A DNA stretch of 64,000 nt from Lutibacter citreus (GTDB lineage Bacteria; Bacteroidota; Bacteroidia; Flavobacteriales; Flavobacteriaceae). A program made the position numbers and the translations under genes. Every line of letters starts with the position of its first letter. Position 1 is the first letter of the stretch. Location of the stretch: NCBI RefSeq assembly GCF_003260195.1, contig NZ_QEIH01000005.1, forward strand, positions 62,001-126,000, in the 5' to 3' direction. The notes under the pieces were generated by a model. That model saw nothing but the letters and a program-made list of their open reading frames with translations. It ran no database searches and was not told where the DNA came from. This document shows positions 55,251-61,223 of this stretch, piece after piece.

Positions 55251-55805
55251 ATGAATTTTAAATTTAACAAAAAATCAATTTCAAATATTGTTTTCATTTT
55301 AGTGATTGCAACTTTACTTTATCCACCTTCAAAAGAGTGGGTTCTGCGTCAAATTGCATTTTCACCTTCCGTTAATGTTGAAAGTACAAACAATATAGGT
55401 GACTATAATTGGGAACTAAAAGGACTGAATACAAAAAGTTTAAACTTAAAAGATCTTGAAAACCGAGTTGTTTTTGTAAACTTTTGGGCTACTTGGTGTC
55501 CTCCTTGTAGAGCTGAAATGCCCATGATACAAGAATTATATAATGATTATAAGGATAAAATTGATTTTATTTTTGTGACAAATGAAAATTTGGAAACAGT
55601 AAATAAATTCTTTAAAAAGAATAATTACAACCTACCTGTTTTTAATTCTATAGGTTTACCTCCGAGTAAGTTAACTGAAACAAATAGTATTCCGGCCACT
55701 TATTTAATTGATAAAAAAGGTAATATTGTTATAAATGAAGTTGGCTCTGCAAATTGGAATAGTAAAAAAGTTCGAAAAATTATTGATGAATTATTAACAG
55801 AATAA
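55251..55805 (+). CDS. TlpA-like thioredoxin, membrane-anchored
   Basis: A 184-residue thiol-disulfide oxidoreductase with one N-terminal helix (NIVFILVIATLLYPP) and a thioredoxin-like domain outside the membrane. The active site is NFWATWCPPCRAEMPM at about residues 79-94, and the cis-Pro loop is TNSIPATYLID. It probably keeps exported cysteines reduced (cytochrome maturation or envelope proteins). Confidence 0.9.
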   Translation: MNFKFNKKSISNIVFILVIATLLYPPSKEWVLRQIAFSPSVNVESTNNIGDYNWELKGLNTKSLNLKDLENRVVFVNFWATWCPPCRAEMPMIQELYNDYKDKIDFIFVTNENLETVNKFFKKNNYNLPVFNSIGLPPSKLTETNSIPATYLIDKKGNIVINEVGSANWNSKKVRKIIDELLTE

Positions 55806-55815
55806 TTTACAATCT

Positions 55816-55845
55816 TTTGTAGCGTTTTTATAAGGTTCAACGTAT
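55816..55845 (+). promoter_or_regulatory. predicted ECF sigma promoter, copy A
   Basis: GTAGCGTTTT (55819-55828), 11 bases, then ACGTA (55840-55844), preceded by T-rich sequence. The same two blocks at the same distance occur upstream of the VWA lipoprotein gene (58860-58885). It sits 63 bases before the ATG of the first gene of the sigma-factor operon, so the sigma factor may activate its own operon. Confidence 0.6.
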
Positions 55846-55907: not shown

Positions 55908-56348
55908 ATGAAGAACATTACCATAATAACCGTATTTTTATTAACCCTAGTGTCTTGTGATTTAAAAGATGATTGTGGAGCTTGTTTTACTCCTCCAAGA
56001 CAGTTTAATTTTGAATTTTCTGATAAAGATTCAGGAGAAGATTTATTTGATAATGGAACCTTTAACATTGATGATGTAAAAATTACAGATGAAGAGGATA
56101 AAAATGTTACGTTTGAGGTAGTTTTGTATAATGATAGTTTTATTGTTTCAATAAATTCAATAGGATGGGAGTTAGAGCCAAAAACATATACAATTCAATT
56201 AAATGATGATACTCCAATAGTTTTTGACTTAGATATGAACACTGCAAGTGATAATTGTTGTTCATATTTTGAAGTAGAAAATTTTGAACTCTATGATTAT
56301 GAATATTCAGAATCTAATACTACTGGTATTATTCAAGTAAAAATTTAA
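55908..56348 (+). CDS. lipoprotein, first gene of the ECF sigma operon
   Basis: A 146-residue lipoprotein (lipobox LVSCD, Cys 17). The mature N-terminus DCGACFTPPRQFNFEFSD and the later NCCSYFEVENF have a conserved-looking pattern of Cys pairs. I recognise the CGACFTPP-type start from other flavobacterial lipoproteins, without known function. It is followed after 3 bases by another lipoprotein and then the sigma factor. A predicted ECF promoter lies upstream. Confidence 0.75.
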   Translation: MKNITIITVFLLTLVSCDLKDDCGACFTPPRQFNFEFSDKDSGEDLFDNGTFNIDDVKITDEEDKNVTFEVVLYNDSFIVSINSIGWELEPKTYTIQLNDDTPIVFDLDMNTASDNCCSYFEVENFELYDYEYSESNTTGIIQVKI

Positions 56349-56351
56349 TAA

Positions 56352-56906
56352 ATGAAAATAAAATTATATATTCTATTTGTAAGTTGTTTTACAATGCTAT
56401 TCTCTATTTCTTGTAGCTCTGATGATGCTGGAGAGACAATGGATAGTGTTTATATGCCGTCAGACGTTAATAATTCTATAAGACAAGATGAAGATTTTTT
56501 AGAATTTGTGAGTGCTAAATTACGTATTAATGAAGAGGTTTTTAATTCACTGGAAAAAAACAGATTAAATGAATTAGTAAAAGGAGATGATTATAAAATT
56601 AACTTTGTAAAACGAGAAGGAGATTTTATTCAAATTAATTTGTCCTATAGTGGTGGTTGTCAAAATCATAGTTTTGAACTTATTTGGGATGGGAAAGTTT
56701 ATATAGATGATCCTTGTCATATGAATTTTATATTACTTCACGATGGTAATAATGATGATTGTGAAGCTTATATTACAGAGACAATAACAATAAATTTAGA
56801 TGCACTTGTAGGAAATGTTTCGTATAAAAATGATTGTTCGTATTATATATTTAGTACTTATAATTCCAATAAAAATGCAGATGCGATAGTAAGAGGGATG
56901 AATTAG
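56352..56906 (+). CDS. lipoprotein, second gene of the ECF sigma operon
   Basis: A 184-residue lipoprotein (SISCSSDD, lipidated Cys about 21) with an acidic, Asn-rich mature part. It has GGCQNHSFELIWDG and DPCHMNFILLHDGNNDDC, a paired-Cys pattern compatible with a secreted domain held by disulfides. Family not recognised. It lies 29 bases before the TTG start of the sigma gene and 3 bases after the first lipoprotein. Confidence 0.72.
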   Translation: MKIKLYILFVSCFTMLFSISCSSDDAGETMDSVYMPSDVNNSIRQDEDFLEFVSAKLRINEEVFNSLEKNRLNELVKGDDYKINFVKREGDFIQINLSYSGGCQNHSFELIWDGKVYIDDPCHMNFILLHDGNNDDCEAYITETITINLDALVGNVSYKNDCSYYIFSTYNSNKNADAIVRGMN

Positions 56907-56935
56907 TTTAAATTTAAGATTAGGTTGGTTCAATT

Positions 56936-57490
56936 TTGGAGCAAGAAAAAAGTAAAAATATATTTTTAGAAAATATCCTAAAAAAATGTAAAGACGGAAG
57001 TGTATTACATCAAGAGATGTTATACAAACATTTTTACGGGTATGCTTTAAGTATTTGTAGGCTTTATACTTATAATAATGATGATGCAATAACTATTTTA
57101 AATGATAGTTTTTTAAAAGTATTTTCAAGTATTGAAAAGAAAGGTTATAATGATTCTGTGCCATTTAAAAATTGGTTAAGAAGAATTTTAATAAATACTG
57201 CAATTGATAATTATAGAAAAAATTTGAAACATACAAATCATTCAGATATTGATGAGGTAATTACAGTTGAAGCAGATATTAATATTATTGAAGATTTAAC
57301 CGTTCAAGATATTTTAAAATTGTTAGATCAACTGCCAGAAATTCAAAGACTTGTTTTTAACATGTATGAAATTCAAGGGTTTAGTCATAAAGAAATTTCT
57401 GTAAAATTAGATATAGGTGAGAGCAGCTCAAGAGTGTTCTTAACCAGAGCAAAGAAAAAATTAAGGGTTTTAATAGGAAAAAACTTTTAA
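56936..57490 (+). CDS. ECF-type RNA polymerase sigma factor, TTG start
   Basis: A 184-residue sigma-70 family factor. Region 2 spans about residues 24-92 (LYKHFYGYALSICRLY to LRRILINTAIDNYRK), and region 4 about 120-175 (LLDQLPEIQRLVFNMYEIQG, HKEISVKLDIGESSSRVFL). It starts with TTG; the first in-frame ATG would remove much of region 2. The downstream gene begins 4 bases later and has features of its anti-sigma. The predicted target promoters are at 55816-55845 and 58857-58886. Confidence 0.88.
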   Translation: MEQEKSKNIFLENILKKCKDGSVLHQEMLYKHFYGYALSICRLYTYNNDDAITILNDSFLKVFSSIEKKGYNDSVPFKNWLRRILINTAIDNYRKNLKHTNHSDIDEVITVEADINIIEDLTVQDILKLLDQLPEIQRLVFNMYEIQGFSHKEISVKLDIGESSSRVFLTRAKKKLRVLIGKNF

Positions 57491-57494
57491 AACA

Positions 57495-58847
57495 ATGGAA
57501 GATAAATTCGATAAAATATTAAGTAATAAAATAAAGGATCTTGTAGAGAACAACGAGGTACCTTATAACCCAGAGCACTGGGACATGTTACTTGCTAAAA
57601 AAAATAAAAATAAAAAACGTGCTTTTTTATTTTGGAGATATGCAGCCATTGTTTTATTTGGTCTATTTGCTGGAGGATTGGGAAAATATTTATATGACAA
57701 TTTAGGAATAATAAAAAATGAAAACCAAGAAATTATTTTTGATACTAAAAATGATTCTTTAAGAATAGACTCTTTAAAAAATAATTTAAATATTAAAATT
57801 ACCTCAATTGGTAATGATAGCTTGGTAAATTTAAACACTACTATTGCCAAAACTGATAGTACATTAATTAATAGAGCAAAAAGAAAGAAATCAGAAAAAC
57901 AACCTTTTATTCTCGATAAAAGCTTAGAGAAAGTTGCTGAGAATACAGTTCAAAAAGAAAAAAAAATTATTCAAAATATTGAAAAAAAGGAACACGTTAT
58001 TAAGAGTAATGTTGCTTTTAAAAATGATTTAATTGTTAATAAAGATTTTAATAGCAGAAAAGATTCAATTAGTAATAAAGTTGAGTTAGCTGTAAATGAG
58101 TTAGAGAAAAAGAAAGATTCCTTAAATTTTAAAGAAGAATTGTTAGCTCAAGTAGAAGAGGAAATATTAGATGTAAAATCTAACCAGAAAAGAATAAAGT
58201 TAGGTATTGGTTTATCTCCTATTTTAGATTATTATCAAGAGAATGAAAGTTCTAACGTTGGGTTTTCCGGAGGTGTAATTGTTGAAATTCCTTTAACAAA
58301 AAGGTTTAATATTAATACAGGAGTATATTATGCAGATCAAAAGCTGGATTTAAATAATGCAACAAATTATTTAGCAGATGGGGTTAGCGCTAAAGAATCT
58401 AAGCAGGTTGTAAATAAAGAGGCAGTAATTAAAGGAGTGGAAATACCATTAAATATTAAATATAATTTTAATATAAACGATAGTCAAGTGTTTGTTTCGG
58501 CGGGAATTTTATCTACATCTTATATAAAAGAAAATATTGAATCTGAGTTTTTAGTTAATAGTAGAACAGAGGCTAAAATTAAAGATGCTTTTGGTAATAA
58601 TATAATTCAATATGGTTTGGTTCAATTATCTGAAAAATCTGTCATTGAAAATGATTCAAATGGATTTAATTTTGCGAATGCTTTAAATTTTTCAATTGGT
58701 ATAGAATTACCCATAAATGAGAAACGGCAATCAATAATTATTGAACCATACTTCAAATATTCCTTGCAAACGGTAACTCAACAAAAAATAGATTTAAACA
58801 GTGCAGGTGTGCATTTACGTTATAATTTTGGTTTTAAATTTAAATAA
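57495..58847 (+). CDS. dual-membrane-spanning anti-sigma-like protein
   Basis: A 450-residue protein in three parts. The cytoplasmic segment (1-42) has PYNPEHWDMLLAKK, a pattern of sigma-binding tails, and is followed by one inner-membrane helix (about 43-66). A charged, Lys/Asp/Asn-rich, coiled-coil-prone periplasmic stretch (70-230) comes next. The C-terminal 220 residues look like an outer-membrane barrel (GIGLSPILDYY, SGGVIVEIPLTKRFNINTG, GVHLRYNFGFKFK). I recall the same layout for dual membrane-spanning anti-sigma factors (Dma) of Bacteroides. It lies 4 bases after the sigma gene. Confidence 0.72.
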   Translation: MEDKFDKILSNKIKDLVENNEVPYNPEHWDMLLAKKNKNKKRAFLFWRYAAIVLFGLFAGGLGKYLYDNLGIIKNENQEIIFDTKNDSLRIDSLKNNLNIKITSIGNDSLVNLNTTIAKTDSTLINRAKRKKSEKQPFILDKSLEKVAENTVQKEKKIIQNIEKKEHVIKSNVAFKNDLIVNKDFNSRKDSISNKVELAVNELEKKKDSLNFKEELLAQVEEEILDVKSNQKRIKLGIGLSPILDYYQENESSNVGFSGGVIVEIPLTKRFNINTGVYYADQKLDLNNATNYLADGVSAKESKQVVNKEAVIKGVEIPLNIKYNFNINDSQVFVSAGILSTSYIKENIESEFLVNSRTEAKIKDAFGNNIIQYGLVQLSEKSVIENDSNGFNFANALNFSIGIELPINEKRQSIIIEPYFKYSLQTVTQQKIDLNSAGVHLRYNFGFKFK

Positions 58848-58856
58848 ATAATTTTT

Positions 58857-58886
58857 TTTGTAGCGTTTTGTATCTTTCATACGTAA
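58857..58886 (+). promoter_or_regulatory. predicted ECF sigma promoter, copy B
   Basis: GTAGCGTTTT (58860-58869), 11 bases, ACGTA (58881-58885), with the same spacing as copy A at 55816-55845. It precedes the VWA lipoprotein gene by about 113 bases. The flanking bases differ, so the match is not a simple duplication. Confidence 0.6.
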
Positions 58887-58998: not shown

Positions 58999-60234
58999 AT
59001 GAAAATTATAAATTTTAAGTTTTTAGGGAAAATTGCTTCTTTTTTAATGTTATTTCTTTTTTTAATAATTACTTCTTGTGACAATGATATTAATGATGTT
59101 GAATCAGATGTAATTAAAGACGGTGACGGTGAATTATATTCATCGGATAGTACTATAAAAGCTGGAGGAGGTTCAGGAACGGAAGGTCAAGGAAATGGTA
59201 ATAATTCTGGTTTGGTAACTGCAGGAGAATGGAACGATTTGAATAATTGGGATTTTTGGACTAATATTTTAAATGAAAACGATTATTTTAAACATGTAGA
59301 TTATTGGAGTTTTTATACAAAAAATAGAATTTCAGTCCTATTGAAAAATAATAACACTCCGGTTATTAATGCTGTTGTAGAGTTAAAGTTAAATAATGAG
59401 ATAGTTTGGAAAAGTATGACTGATAATTTGGGGAAAACAGAATTATTTATTGGATTATATAATAATGAAATAGTTTCAGATTTAAGTAATTACAAACTGT
59501 TTATAAATAATGTTGAAAAATCTACAACTTTAAAGTTTAAGAGTGATGGAGATGTTGAAATTGAGGTTGGTAATTCTCAAAACAATAGTTCTAATAAAGT
59601 AGAATTAGCATTTATTGTTGATGCTACAGGTTCTATGAGTGATGAATTAGAGTTTTTAAAAGACGATTTAAAAGATGTAATTGAGCGTGTTGAACAAAAC
59701 AATTCAACATTGGATGTTTTAACAGGAACAGTTTTTTATAGAGATATAGATGATGAGTATTTAGTGAAATCGTCTGGTTTTTCTGGAGATATTTCATATA
59801 CATTAAATTATATTAATGAACAATCGGCTAGTGGTGGAGGTGATTTTCCAGAAGCCGTTCACACAGCACTAAACGAAGCTATTAATGAATTACAATGGTC
59901 AACAAATTCTAAAACTAGAATTGCCTTTTTACTTTTAGATGCACCACCACATTATACGCCAGAAATAGTTGATAACTTGCACAATTTAATTTCAAAAAGT
60001 GCTGAAAAAGGGATTAAAATTATTCCAATTACAGCAAGCGGAATTAATAAAGAAACAGAATTTTTAATGCGTTTTTTCTCTGTAAGTACTAATGGAACTT
60101 ATGTTTTTATAACCAATGATAGCGGTATTGGGAATGAACATTTAGAAGCTAGTGTTGGAGAGTATGAAGTAGAAAATTTAAATGATTTATTGGTTAGATT
60201 AATTGATAAATATTCTAATTCTGCTAGTTTTTAA
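58999..60234 (+). CDS. VWA-domain lipoprotein
   Basis: A 411-residue surface lipoprotein (lipobox ITSCD, Cys 27). A Gly/Asn-rich linker is followed by a signature TAGEWNDLNNWDFW and a small beta domain (ISVLLKNNNTPVINAV). The VWA domain begins near residue 200, with a metal-site motif DATGSMS at 208-214 and SGGGDFPEAVH later. VWA domains bind proteins or metal; the ligand is unknown. It has predicted promoter copy B, so it is likely part of the sigma-factor regulon, and two lipoprotein genes follow. Confidence 0.85.
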   Translation: MKIINFKFLGKIASFLMLFLFLIITSCDNDINDVESDVIKDGDGELYSSDSTIKAGGGSGTEGQGNGNNSGLVTAGEWNDLNNWDFWTNILNENDYFKHVDYWSFYTKNRISVLLKNNNTPVINAVVELKLNNEIVWKSMTDNLGKTELFIGLYNNEIVSDLSNYKLFINNVEKSTTLKFKSDGDVEIEVGNSQNNSSNKVELAFIVDATGSMSDELEFLKDDLKDVIERVEQNNSTLDVLTGTVFYRDIDDEYLVKSSGFSGDISYTLNYINEQSASGGGDFPEAVHTALNEAINELQWSTNSKTRIAFLLLDAPPHYTPEIVDNLHNLISKSAEKGIKIIPITASGINKETEFLMRFFSVSTNGTYVFITNDSGIGNEHLEASVGEYEVENLNDLLVRLIDKYSNSASF

Positions 60235-60319: not shown

Positions 60320-60709
60320 ATGAAAAATATAATATTAAGTATTTTAGTACTATCAGTTTTTTTTAGTTGTTCTAATGATGATGAAAGTTTAAATGATAAT
60401 TTAGTTGGAAATTGGAACTGGAAGAGTTCTTCGGGGGGAATTGCAGGTATTACAGAAACACCTGAAACTACAGGAAATACTATAAATCTTGAAATTACAA
60501 AAGATTCTATATTTAATTATTTGAATGGTACTTTGAGTGGTAAAACAGCATATACTATTGAAACAAAGGAGTCGCTTTTATTTAATGAAATGTCTGATAT
60601 GATAATTCGAGAGAATGGATTTAGACAAATTATTAATATTAGTAAAGATCAATTAATATTGGTTGGAGATTGTTATGATTGTTTTTCAAGTGAATATGTT
60701 AAAGAATAA
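60320..60709 (+). CDS. lipocalin-like lipoprotein
   Basis: A 129-residue lipoprotein (FFSCSNDD, Cys about 17). LVGNWNWKSSSGGI near residue 28 resembles the start of lipocalin-like domains that bind small hydrophobic molecules, and GDCYDCF near the end has a Cys pair. Function unknown. It lies 85 bases after the VWA gene, possibly on the same transcript. No ECF promoter was found in front. Confidence 0.68.
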   Translation: MKNIILSILVLSVFFSCSNDDESLNDNLVGNWNWKSSSGGIAGITETPETTGNTINLEITKDSIFNYLNGTLSGKTAYTIETKESLLFNEMSDMIIRENGFRQIINISKDQLILVGDCYDCFSSEYVKE

Positions 60710-60785: not shown

Positions 60786-61223
60786 ATGAAAAATTACATT
60801 TGGATTGCATTAATTATTGGTTTATTTATTTCTTGTGATTCAAACGAAGAATTGGAAAATGATACTATTATTTATGGTTTAGTTAAAATGAGTGGTAGAA
60901 CTATTGATTCTGAAACTACTGGAGCTGAGATGGAATGGCAAGAAAATATTTGTTTTTATAGTGACGGAACATTTAAAAAATTACGTATTATTGATGATGA
61001 AATTATTGAGGCATCAGGAACGTATATCAATATAGTTATTGATAATGAAGAATTCTATGAACTCACATATAACTCTGATAATACTTTAATTGCTAGTTGT
61101 TTAGGAGGGTTGAAAGAACAACTTAAAGTTATAAATAGTTTTAGTTTAAAAGGAACCTGGAGTTATTGTGATGGGCCTAGTTTGGAATATAATCAAATGA
61201 TAACTTGCAGCACTCTAAACTAA
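60786..61223 (+). CDS. hypothetical lipoprotein
   Basis: A 145-residue lipoprotein (FISCDSNE, Cys about 17), acidic and beta-rich, with FYSDGTFKKLRIID and FSLKGTWSYCDG. The GTWSYCDG element is again lipocalin-like. Weak similarity in layout to the preceding gene suggests an old duplication. A terminator follows. Confidence 0.62.
   Translation: MKNYIWIALIIGLFISCDSNEELENDTIIYGLVKMSGRTIDSETTGAEMEWQENICFYSDGTFKKLRIIDDEIIEASGTYINIVIDNEEFYELTYNSDNTLIASCLGGLKEQLKVINSFSLKGTWSYCDGPSLEYNQMITCSTLN

What the first reader, a model, noticed from the sequence alone, without database searches (positions are those of the whole stretch)
55908..58847. ECF sigma factor paired with a protein predicted to span both membranes
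The gene after the sigma factor begins 4 bases later. It has a short cytoplasmic N-terminus, one transmembrane helix, a long charged periplasmic segment and a C-terminal outer-membrane barrel, all in 450 residues. A single polypeptide could then sense the outer membrane and hold the sigma factor in the cytoplasm. I recall this architecture for the dual membrane-spanning anti-sigma factors (Dma) reported in Bacteroides. A flavobacterial version with two lipoproteins in the same operon would extend it and hints that they may be ligands or partners.
Basis: partly seen in the sequence, partly recalled or inferred. Interest (0 to 1): 0.72.

Follow-up and report, generated by a model that had tools for sequence, protein, structure and literature searches.

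The report
Envelope-spanning switch controlling bacterial surface lipoproteins
A Lutibacter-like bacterium carries a gene switch of a kind known from gut bacteria, whose repressor is predicted to be one long protein reaching from inside the cell to its outer membrane, and genome comparison points to a small set of surface lipoproteins that the switch turns on.

Summary
Window 56936-57490 encodes an ECF sigma factor. Four bases later a 450-residue protein has a conserved N-terminus, one N-in helix, a variable linker and a C-terminal OMP_b-brl_2 barrel. It is a Dma/Reo-type anti-sigma factor by architecture and by profile homology to five proteins of unnamed, Bacteroides-type genomes. The architecture is common in Bacteroidota, so a Lutibacter member is expected. 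What this study adds is the output. The element TGTAGCGTT-N14-CGTA has 41 exact sites in 15 of 38 genomes of the genus: 15 of 16 with this Dma, 0 of 22 without. Of 39 distinct sites, 34 lie before lipoprotein genes; the window baseline is 2 of 56 genes. So the finding's two lipoproteins are best read as products of the switch. The second is weakly NigD-like and found in 14 of 38 genomes, all Dma-positive. The ligand idea is untested. Contact between sigma and anti-sigma was not shown (covariation inconclusive).

The parts
55818..55844 (+). Predicted sigma-specific promoter of the operon, TGTAGC-N17-CGTA, 90 bases before the first lipoprotein gene
   Evidence: one of 4 exact sites in the genome
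55908..56348 (+). Lipoprotein A (146 aa, lipobox ending VSC), no Pfam family; a relative is the first gene behind the element in 9 of 37 site loci, the window's own included
56352..56906 (+). Lipoprotein B (184 aa, lipobox ending ISC), weakly NigD_C-like, with GGCxxHxF invariant in 17 aligned relatives
   Evidence: NigD_C E=0.04, below cut-off, 3.7e-4 for an orthologue, below cut-off; NF051862 E=0.0011, below cut-off; A5 alignment; hhalign against NigD E=1e-5
56936..57490 (+). ECF sigma factor (184 aa, TTG start)
57495..58847 (+). Dma-type anti-sigma factor (450 aa)
57495..57623 (+). Predicted cytoplasmic sigma-binding domain, residues 1-43, with YNPEHW
   Evidence: (W29 conserved in 90% or more of 54); binding itself not shown
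57624..57689 (+). Single inner-membrane helix, residues about 44-65, N-terminus inside by charge
57690..58190 (+). Periplasmic linker, residues 66-232; sequence divergent, length 151-197 in the genus
58191..58844 (+). C-terminal outer-membrane barrel, residues 233-450
   Evidence: (OMP_b-brl_2 in 41 of 54 aligned members)
58859..58885 (+). Second predicted sigma-specific promoter, 140 bases before 58999
58999..60234 (+). Predicted regulon lipoprotein with a VWA domain (411 aa)
60320..60709 (+). Small lipoprotein behind the VWA gene; no site of its own in the 300 bases upstream, membership inferred from position only
60786..61223 (+). Small lipoprotein; lipoproteins with a similar SETTG/MEWQE stretch lie behind dma in L032, L035, L036 and L037 (by eye); no site of its own in the 300 bases upstream

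Best explanation
This is a Dma/Reo-type sigma switch of Lutibacter that controls a small set of lipoproteins. Inferred resting state: the first 43 residues of the anti-sigma factor hold the sigma factor at the inner face of the cytoplasmic membrane, while the same chain crosses the periplasm through a flexible linker and ends in an outer-membrane barrel. Inferred signal: disturbance or occupancy of the barrel at the outer membrane. Inferred output: the sigma factor is released, binds RNA polymerase and reads promoters of the form TGTAGCGTTTT-N12-CGTA. Supported by sequence comparison: such elements stand before the lipoprotein A - lipoprotein B - sigma - dma operon itself and before further lipoprotein genes (VWA, LVIVD-repeat, FKBP and others), so the switch should be autoregulated and its product a changed lipoprotein coat. 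How the signal crosses the linker (pulling, refolding or proteolysis) is unknown.
For: Architecture and topology. Homology to five Dma-type proteins of unnamed Bacteroides-type genomes: N-terminus and helix hhalign E=6e-8, barrel of the phylum profile E=2.7e-16. Of the 5 genomes with a NigD1/2-family gene, 3 have such a gene as divergent neighbour of a sigma gene of this family, a fourth has it just upstream on the same strand, and the fifth (G807) has none adjacent. Promoter: 41 exact sites in 15 of 38 genus genomes, 15 of 16 Dma-positive and 0 of 22 Dma-negative, 1 hit of the reversed control pattern; among the 29 genomes at least 90% complete and at most 5% contaminated, 13 have both and 16 neither. 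Targets: 33 of 37 distinct sites precede lipoprotein genes (32 by rule, 1 by eye), and so does 1 of the 2 remaining distinct sites; baseline 2 of 56 window genes. Same-gene test: the LVIVD lipoprotein gene has the element in 10 of 10 Dma-positive genomes examined, one with a mismatch, and in 0 of 2 Dma-negative ones. Lipoprotein B is in 14 of 38 genomes, all Dma-positive. Elsewhere in the phylum the element scores 13.5 or more before 15 of 62 sigma genes against 41 of 1240 control stretches from the same loci.
Against: No structure model and no direct evidence of sigma binding: covariation with the N-terminal domain was no stronger than with the rest (18 of the top 100 pairs, 16% of columns). 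One search aligned only the N-terminus and helix of the window's own group; the barrel link needed the phylum profile. One Dma-positive genome (G016, 34% identity) has no exact site and nothing convincing before its sigma gene. 2 of 37 sites have no gene of 90 residues or more within 700 bases, one has a NusG-like gene 486 bases away and one a barrel protein. Most of the 62 phylum upstream stretches score below 13.5. The 6 of 12 NigD upstream stretches printed show no element. Genomes of one genus are related, so the Fisher values overstate independence. That the NigD-bearing genomes are Bacteroides relatives is inferred, since they are unnamed.
Confidence: 0.8

Rival explanations
1. One reading: the operon lipoproteins are ligands or partners of the barrel and take part in sensing.
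For: Lipoprotein B is found only in Dma-positive genomes, one copy each, on the contig of dma and close to it, tighter than the LVIVD protein, which also occurs in 2 Dma-negative genomes. In loci L064-L127 that have a same-strand gene within 300 bases upstream of sigma, that gene is a lipoprotein in 19 of 36 cases against 30 of 246 control frames (close relatives among the loci, and control frames may include non-genes). Feedback by a product is common in envelope stress systems (recalled).
Against: All four exact sites in the genome, including two far from the locus, precede lipoprotein genes, so being a product is enough to explain them. The upstream families differ between lineages (by eye), and G018 and G016 have dma without lipoprotein B. 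No contact evidence.
Confidence: 0.25
2. The 450-residue protein is an ordinary outer-membrane protein whose helix is a signal peptide; it is not an anti-sigma factor.
For: OMP_b-brl_2 domains are mostly found in ordinary outer-membrane proteins (established knowledge), and one site in the genus precedes such a protein (L143).
Against: The 43 residues before the helix are the best conserved part (0.59 identity), are shared with Dma-type proteins of Bacteroides-type genomes, and the gene follows the sigma gene in all 15 other genus orthologues. A natural sigma-helix-linker-barrel fusion exists (L219).
Confidence: 0.04
3. A FecI/FecR-type cell-surface signalling set, with the barrel only a receptor and a separate anti-sigma factor.
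For: FecI-type sigma factors are common in Bacteroidota (established knowledge); TIGR02985 gives this sigma factor 69.4 bits, below its cut-off of 126.4.
Against: No FecR domain and no TonB-dependent receptor among the eight neighbouring proteins scanned. A FecR-like protein (by eye) lies beside another sigma gene of the genome (L010).
Confidence: 0.03
4. The promoter element belongs to a different sigma factor that happens to share the distribution.
For: The genome has 25 matches to sigma region 4, not all of them sigma factors.
Against: The element is absent from all 22 Dma-negative genomes and has exact copies on both sides of the sigma-dma locus in 9 of the 15 genomes with sites (positions). 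Its CGT box resembles that reported for an ECF-type motif in Flavobacterium psychrophilum (PMC9723704, passages). Distribution of the other sigma factors of the genome was not tested.
Confidence: 0.08

Closest known systems
Das/Dma of Bacteroides thetaiotaomicron (PMC13088901: abstract, introduction, discussion, passages and part of the reference list seen; the PNAS 2024 paper is not held)
   Same: Sigma gene beside one chain with N-terminal domain, one helix, long disordered tether and C-terminal barrel; Dma1 and Das1 control nigD1
   Different: Other class (Flavobacteriia); here lipoprotein genes lie upstream in the same operon; the known read-outs, vesicles and polysaccharide utilization loci, are not tested here
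EcfO-Reo of Bacteroides/Phocaeicola (PMC13114119 and PMC9308784: passages seen; J Bacteriol 2013 paper not held)
   Same: Sigma factor with an anti-sigma factor ending in an outer-membrane barrel; its regulon includes three nigD surface lipoproteins; one nigD (03762) is numbered next to the sigma gene (03761)
   Different: The regulon there also raises an LPS glycan glycosyltransferase gene; induction by toxins is shown there and untested here; direct sequence comparison with Reo itself was not possible
ECF system proposed for motif SM6 in Flavobacterium psychrophilum (PMC9723704: passages seen)
   Same: [quoted passage not shown] a sigma/anti-sigma pair among the genes behind the motif; envelope genes among the targets
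   Different: Named SM6 genes include T9SS and band-7 genes; whether that anti-sigma factor is of Dma type was not checked

Membership tests
[quoted passage not shown]
   4-base gap; 15 of 15 other genus orthologues
[quoted passage not shown]
   Domain and helix present and homologous; binding not shown
[quoted passage not shown]
   151-197 residues, about 0.20 identity in its middle, 61-69% polar or charged residues; disorder itself was not computed
[quoted passage not shown]
   OMP_b-brl_2 over its cut-off; by profile only, no structure
[quoted passage not shown]
[quoted passage not shown]
   needs a mutant
ECF21 sigma factors | Assignment by the ECF group profiles | not testable with these tools
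   group profiles not held; the profile A6, which includes the window's sigma factor, finds the three sigma genes divergent from NigD at 8e-43 to 1.3e-39
NigD-like lipoproteins (for lipoprotein B) | NigD_C or NF051862 over the curated cut-off | tested here: not met
   14.4 against 22.6 bits and 18.8 against 60 bits; the one genus orthologue scanned reaches 21.0 against 22.6; so NigD-like at most
FecI/FecR cell-surface signalling | FecR domain in the anti-sigma factor | tested here: not met

The most novel reading that the evidence does not exclude
Across Bacteroidota, Dma switches are dedicated surface-lipoprotein controllers in which the lipoprotein encoded beside the sigma gene is both product and feedback ligand of the Dma barrel, so that the cell counts its own lipoprotein coat through one chain spanning the envelope.
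Probability: 0.15. Interest if true: 0.75.

Novelty: new member of a known kind. Interest (0 to 1): 0.5.

Why it matters
Dma/Reo systems are described in gut Bacteroidales, where their signals and the role of NigD lipoproteins are open questions (PMC13088901 discussion, PMC13114119 passages). This locus gives a counterpart in Lutibacter with a short predicted regulon, four exact sites in the genome, and a promoter that can be tested directly with a reporter. It suggests that control of surface lipoproteins, rather than one particular stress, may be the shared task of the family.

Tried and rejected

Covariation of sigma and anti-sigma by mean-field DCA on 137 pairs (effective number 130): inconclusive. 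A cluster of residues 9, 10 and 13 with sigma region 4 is suggestive only.

A search for repeated gapped words upstream of sigma genes outside the genus gave mostly AT-rich noise. The element was not seen before the 6 of 12 NigD genes whose upstream stretches were printed (the other 6 were passed over by a filter). PDB sequence searches: no hit for the whole anti-sigma profile, a chance-level hit for the barrel (E=0.65), and a weak hit of lipoprotein B to a NigD-like structure, 3qwn, E=0.49, below a ribosomal protein at E=0.14.

Two scripts gave incomplete first passes and were redone: (strand of some loci) (filter too strict, 21 pairs). In one search the script stopped at L324, so the second, more divergent LVIVD copies in G008 (L324) and G024 (L325), and the copy in G016 cut by a contig end (L323), were not examined.

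One search allowed one mismatch but listed only exact sites; I did not find out whether one-mismatch sites exist in the own genome. In G024 a one-mismatch site does exist (L318).

Considered and rejected: FecI/FecR signalling; helix as signal peptide. Lipoproteins as ligands is kept as a rival.
Full report
What is there. The window carries, on the plus strand, two lipoprotein genes (55908-56348, 56352-56906), an ECF sigma gene (56936-57490, TTG start) and, after 4 bases, a 450-residue gene (57495-58847). Sigma regions 2 and 4 and an OMP_b-brl_2 barrel are found by Pfam. The barrel protein has one hydrophobic helix from about residue 44. In 16 aligned members of the genus the residues before the helix carry a net charge of +1 to +8 and those after it -2 to +2, so the N-terminus should be inside. 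The N-terminal 43 residues are conserved (0.59 mean pairwise identity), the middle of the linker is not (0.20), the barrel is (0.55), and linker length is 151 to 197. An alternation scan suggests about eight strands from 234 to 450 (read by eye). No structure could be predicted.

Distribution. The genus is Lutibacter by the titles of the closest named loci. The anti-sigma factor is in 16 of 38 genomes of the genus, and all 15 others have the sigma gene directly upstream. Within the family, at E 1e-10 and with at most four candidates scored per genome, 6 of 397 genomes match, three of them of the genus. The wider sigma family is widespread: 297 of 395 sampled Bacteroidota genomes have a match at 1e-22. 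From the loci fetched, mostly best-scoring matches, 199 distinct pairs of sigma and downstream gene were collected, and 141 have a barrel by a profile built from 54 of these proteins. Of 105 complete long pairs outside that set, 80 have it. Of 162 complete long pairs, 155 have exactly one helix, and 134 of the 153 with a helix in the first 90 residues are N-in by charge. Two fetched relatives (L103, L126) are followed by shorter proteins without a barrel, L103 in a record titled Rickettsiales.

Relation to Dma/Reo. In the phylum sample NF051862 (NigD1/NigD2) passes its cut-off in 5 of 395 genomes, and among the 14 control genomes in Bacteroides ihuae only. In three of the five a NigD gene and a sigma gene of this family are divergent neighbours; in a fourth the NigD gene lies just upstream of such a sigma gene on the same strand, with a 182-residue downstream protein that has a helix but no barrel; in the fifth no NigD gene is adjacent. 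The downstream proteins of two of the divergent pairs have the helix and the barrel; in the third the downstream gene was not recovered, and only a frame cut by the locus end is listed (L179). Profile comparison of the window's group with five Dma-type proteins of these genomes, two of them beside NigD, aligns N-terminus and helix only (E 6e-8); the phylum profile aligns the barrel (E 2.7e-16). One of the genomes has a natural fusion of sigma, helix, linker and barrel (L219, 547 residues), the layout that the literature gives for Dma3 (PMC13088901, discussion).

The regulon. Reading the window showed the same element before 55908 and before 58999. A loose form of it gives 3 matches in the window with up to three mismatches, against 0.48 expected; the third, with three mismatches, lies elsewhere. 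The exact form TGTAGCGTT-N14-CGTA occurs four times in the own genome, each time shortly before a lipoprotein gene. In the genus there are 41 sites in 15 of 38 genomes: 15 of 16 with the anti-sigma factor, 0 of 22 without; the reversed pattern gives one hit. Nine of the 38 genomes are less than 90% complete or more than 5% contaminated; in the other 29, 13 have both and 16 have neither. The exception G016 has the most divergent copy (34% identity). Of the 39 distinct site sequences, 37 were examined: 32 precede a lipoprotein gene by rule and 1 more by eye (L150). One has an outer-membrane barrel gene (L143), one a NusG-like gene 486 bases away (L141), and two have no gene of 90 residues or more within 700 bases (L163, L164). 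Of the two distinct sites left, both seen, one precedes a lipoprotein (L054) and one lies 286 bases before the sigma gene (L052). So 34 of 39 precede lipoprotein genes. The baseline by the same rule is 2 of 56 window genes outside the locus, and 6 of 87 genes in the 25 region-4 loci of the own genome, the window's own locus included. Pfam names an LVIVD-repeat protein, FKBP isomerases and VWA proteins among the targets; of the small lipoproteins behind the sites that were scanned, none has a Pfam family over its cut-off.

Two further tests. The LVIVD lipoprotein gene is in 13 of 38 genomes, 11 of 16 Dma-positive and 2 of 22 Dma-negative. In the 10 Dma-positive genomes examined it has the element 75-120 bases upstream, one with a single mismatch, and in both Dma-negative genomes it has none. 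The eleventh positive copy (G016) is cut by a contig end, and second, divergent copies in G008 and G024 were not examined. Lipoprotein B is in 14 of 38 genomes, all Dma-positive, one copy each; G016 and G018 lack it. Elsewhere in the phylum, upstream stretches of sigma genes of this family score 13.5 or more for the element in 15 of 62 cases against 41 of 1240 control stretches drawn from the same loci; so most of them lack it. The genomes are related, so the Fisher values are indicative only.

Lipoproteins. Lipoprotein B is weakly NigD-like: NigD_C 14.4 bits against a cut-off of 22.6, 21.0 for an orthologue, hhalign against NigD E 1e-5, probability 82. In loci L064-L127 (which include the divergent Lutibacter L067) that have a same-strand gene within 300 bases upstream of sigma, that gene is a lipoprotein in 19 of 36 cases against 30 of 246 control frames; the families differ (by eye), several loci are close relatives, and control frames may include non-genes.

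Mechanism. Supported by sequence comparison: gene order, topology signals, homology, the promoter-like element, its co-occurrence with the switch and its targets. Inferred: recognition of the element by this sigma factor, sequestration of sigma by residues 1-43, sensing by the barrel, release of sigma, surface display of the lipoproteins. The covariation test for contact did not separate the N-terminal domain from the barrel.

Literature. Passages of PMC13114119 state that Reo spans the envelope, likely senses outer-membrane stress, and that three nigD genes need EcfO. Passages of PMC9308784 state that toxin exposure raises this sigma gene 33-fold and that genes for three NigD orthologues go up. 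Sections of PMC13088901 describe Dma2 and the family as found solely among Bacteroidota. Paper searches for the architecture, the names, the element or the genus (several lists were capped, and hits were mostly judged by title) showed nothing that describes this promoter or regulon in flavobacteria. The PNAS 2024 Dma1 paper and the J Bacteriol 2013 EcfO paper are not held, so mention there cannot be excluded.

Verdict. As an architecture it is an expected member of a known family. The added value is a crisp, testable promoter and lipoprotein regulon.

Noticed in passing
L004 (own genome C12:523458-526601): A second sigma plus single-helix, barrel-ended protein (405 aa, OMP_b-brl_2 5.3e-9) in the same genome; no exact copy of the element was listed on its contig, C12
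   Followed up: partly
L219 (G807:C1:502872-503405 and flanks): Natural fusion of sigma, one helix, linker and barrel in one 547-residue frame, without a separate N-terminal anti-sigma domain
   Followed up: partly
L141 (G025:C1:639739); same site sequence in G026:C1:200699: A copy of the element 486 bases before a NusG-like gene (UpxY-type is a recalled name) in G025; the G026 copy was not looked at. Perhaps a link to surface polysaccharide control
   Followed up: no
L163 and L164 (behind dma in G007 and G003): Copies of the element with no gene of 90 residues or more within 700 bases; perhaps a lost lipoprotein gene or a small RNA
   Followed up: no
window 55251-55805: Thioredoxin-family (Redoxin) gene just upstream of the operon, a similar one also in L034 by eye; possibly redox-related or mere synteny
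   Followed up: no
L103 and L126: Sigma relatives followed by 281-291 aa single-helix proteins without a barrel hit, ending in a stretch that recalls the secretin/TonB short N-terminal domain (recalled resemblance); L103 is titled Rickettsiales
   Followed up: no
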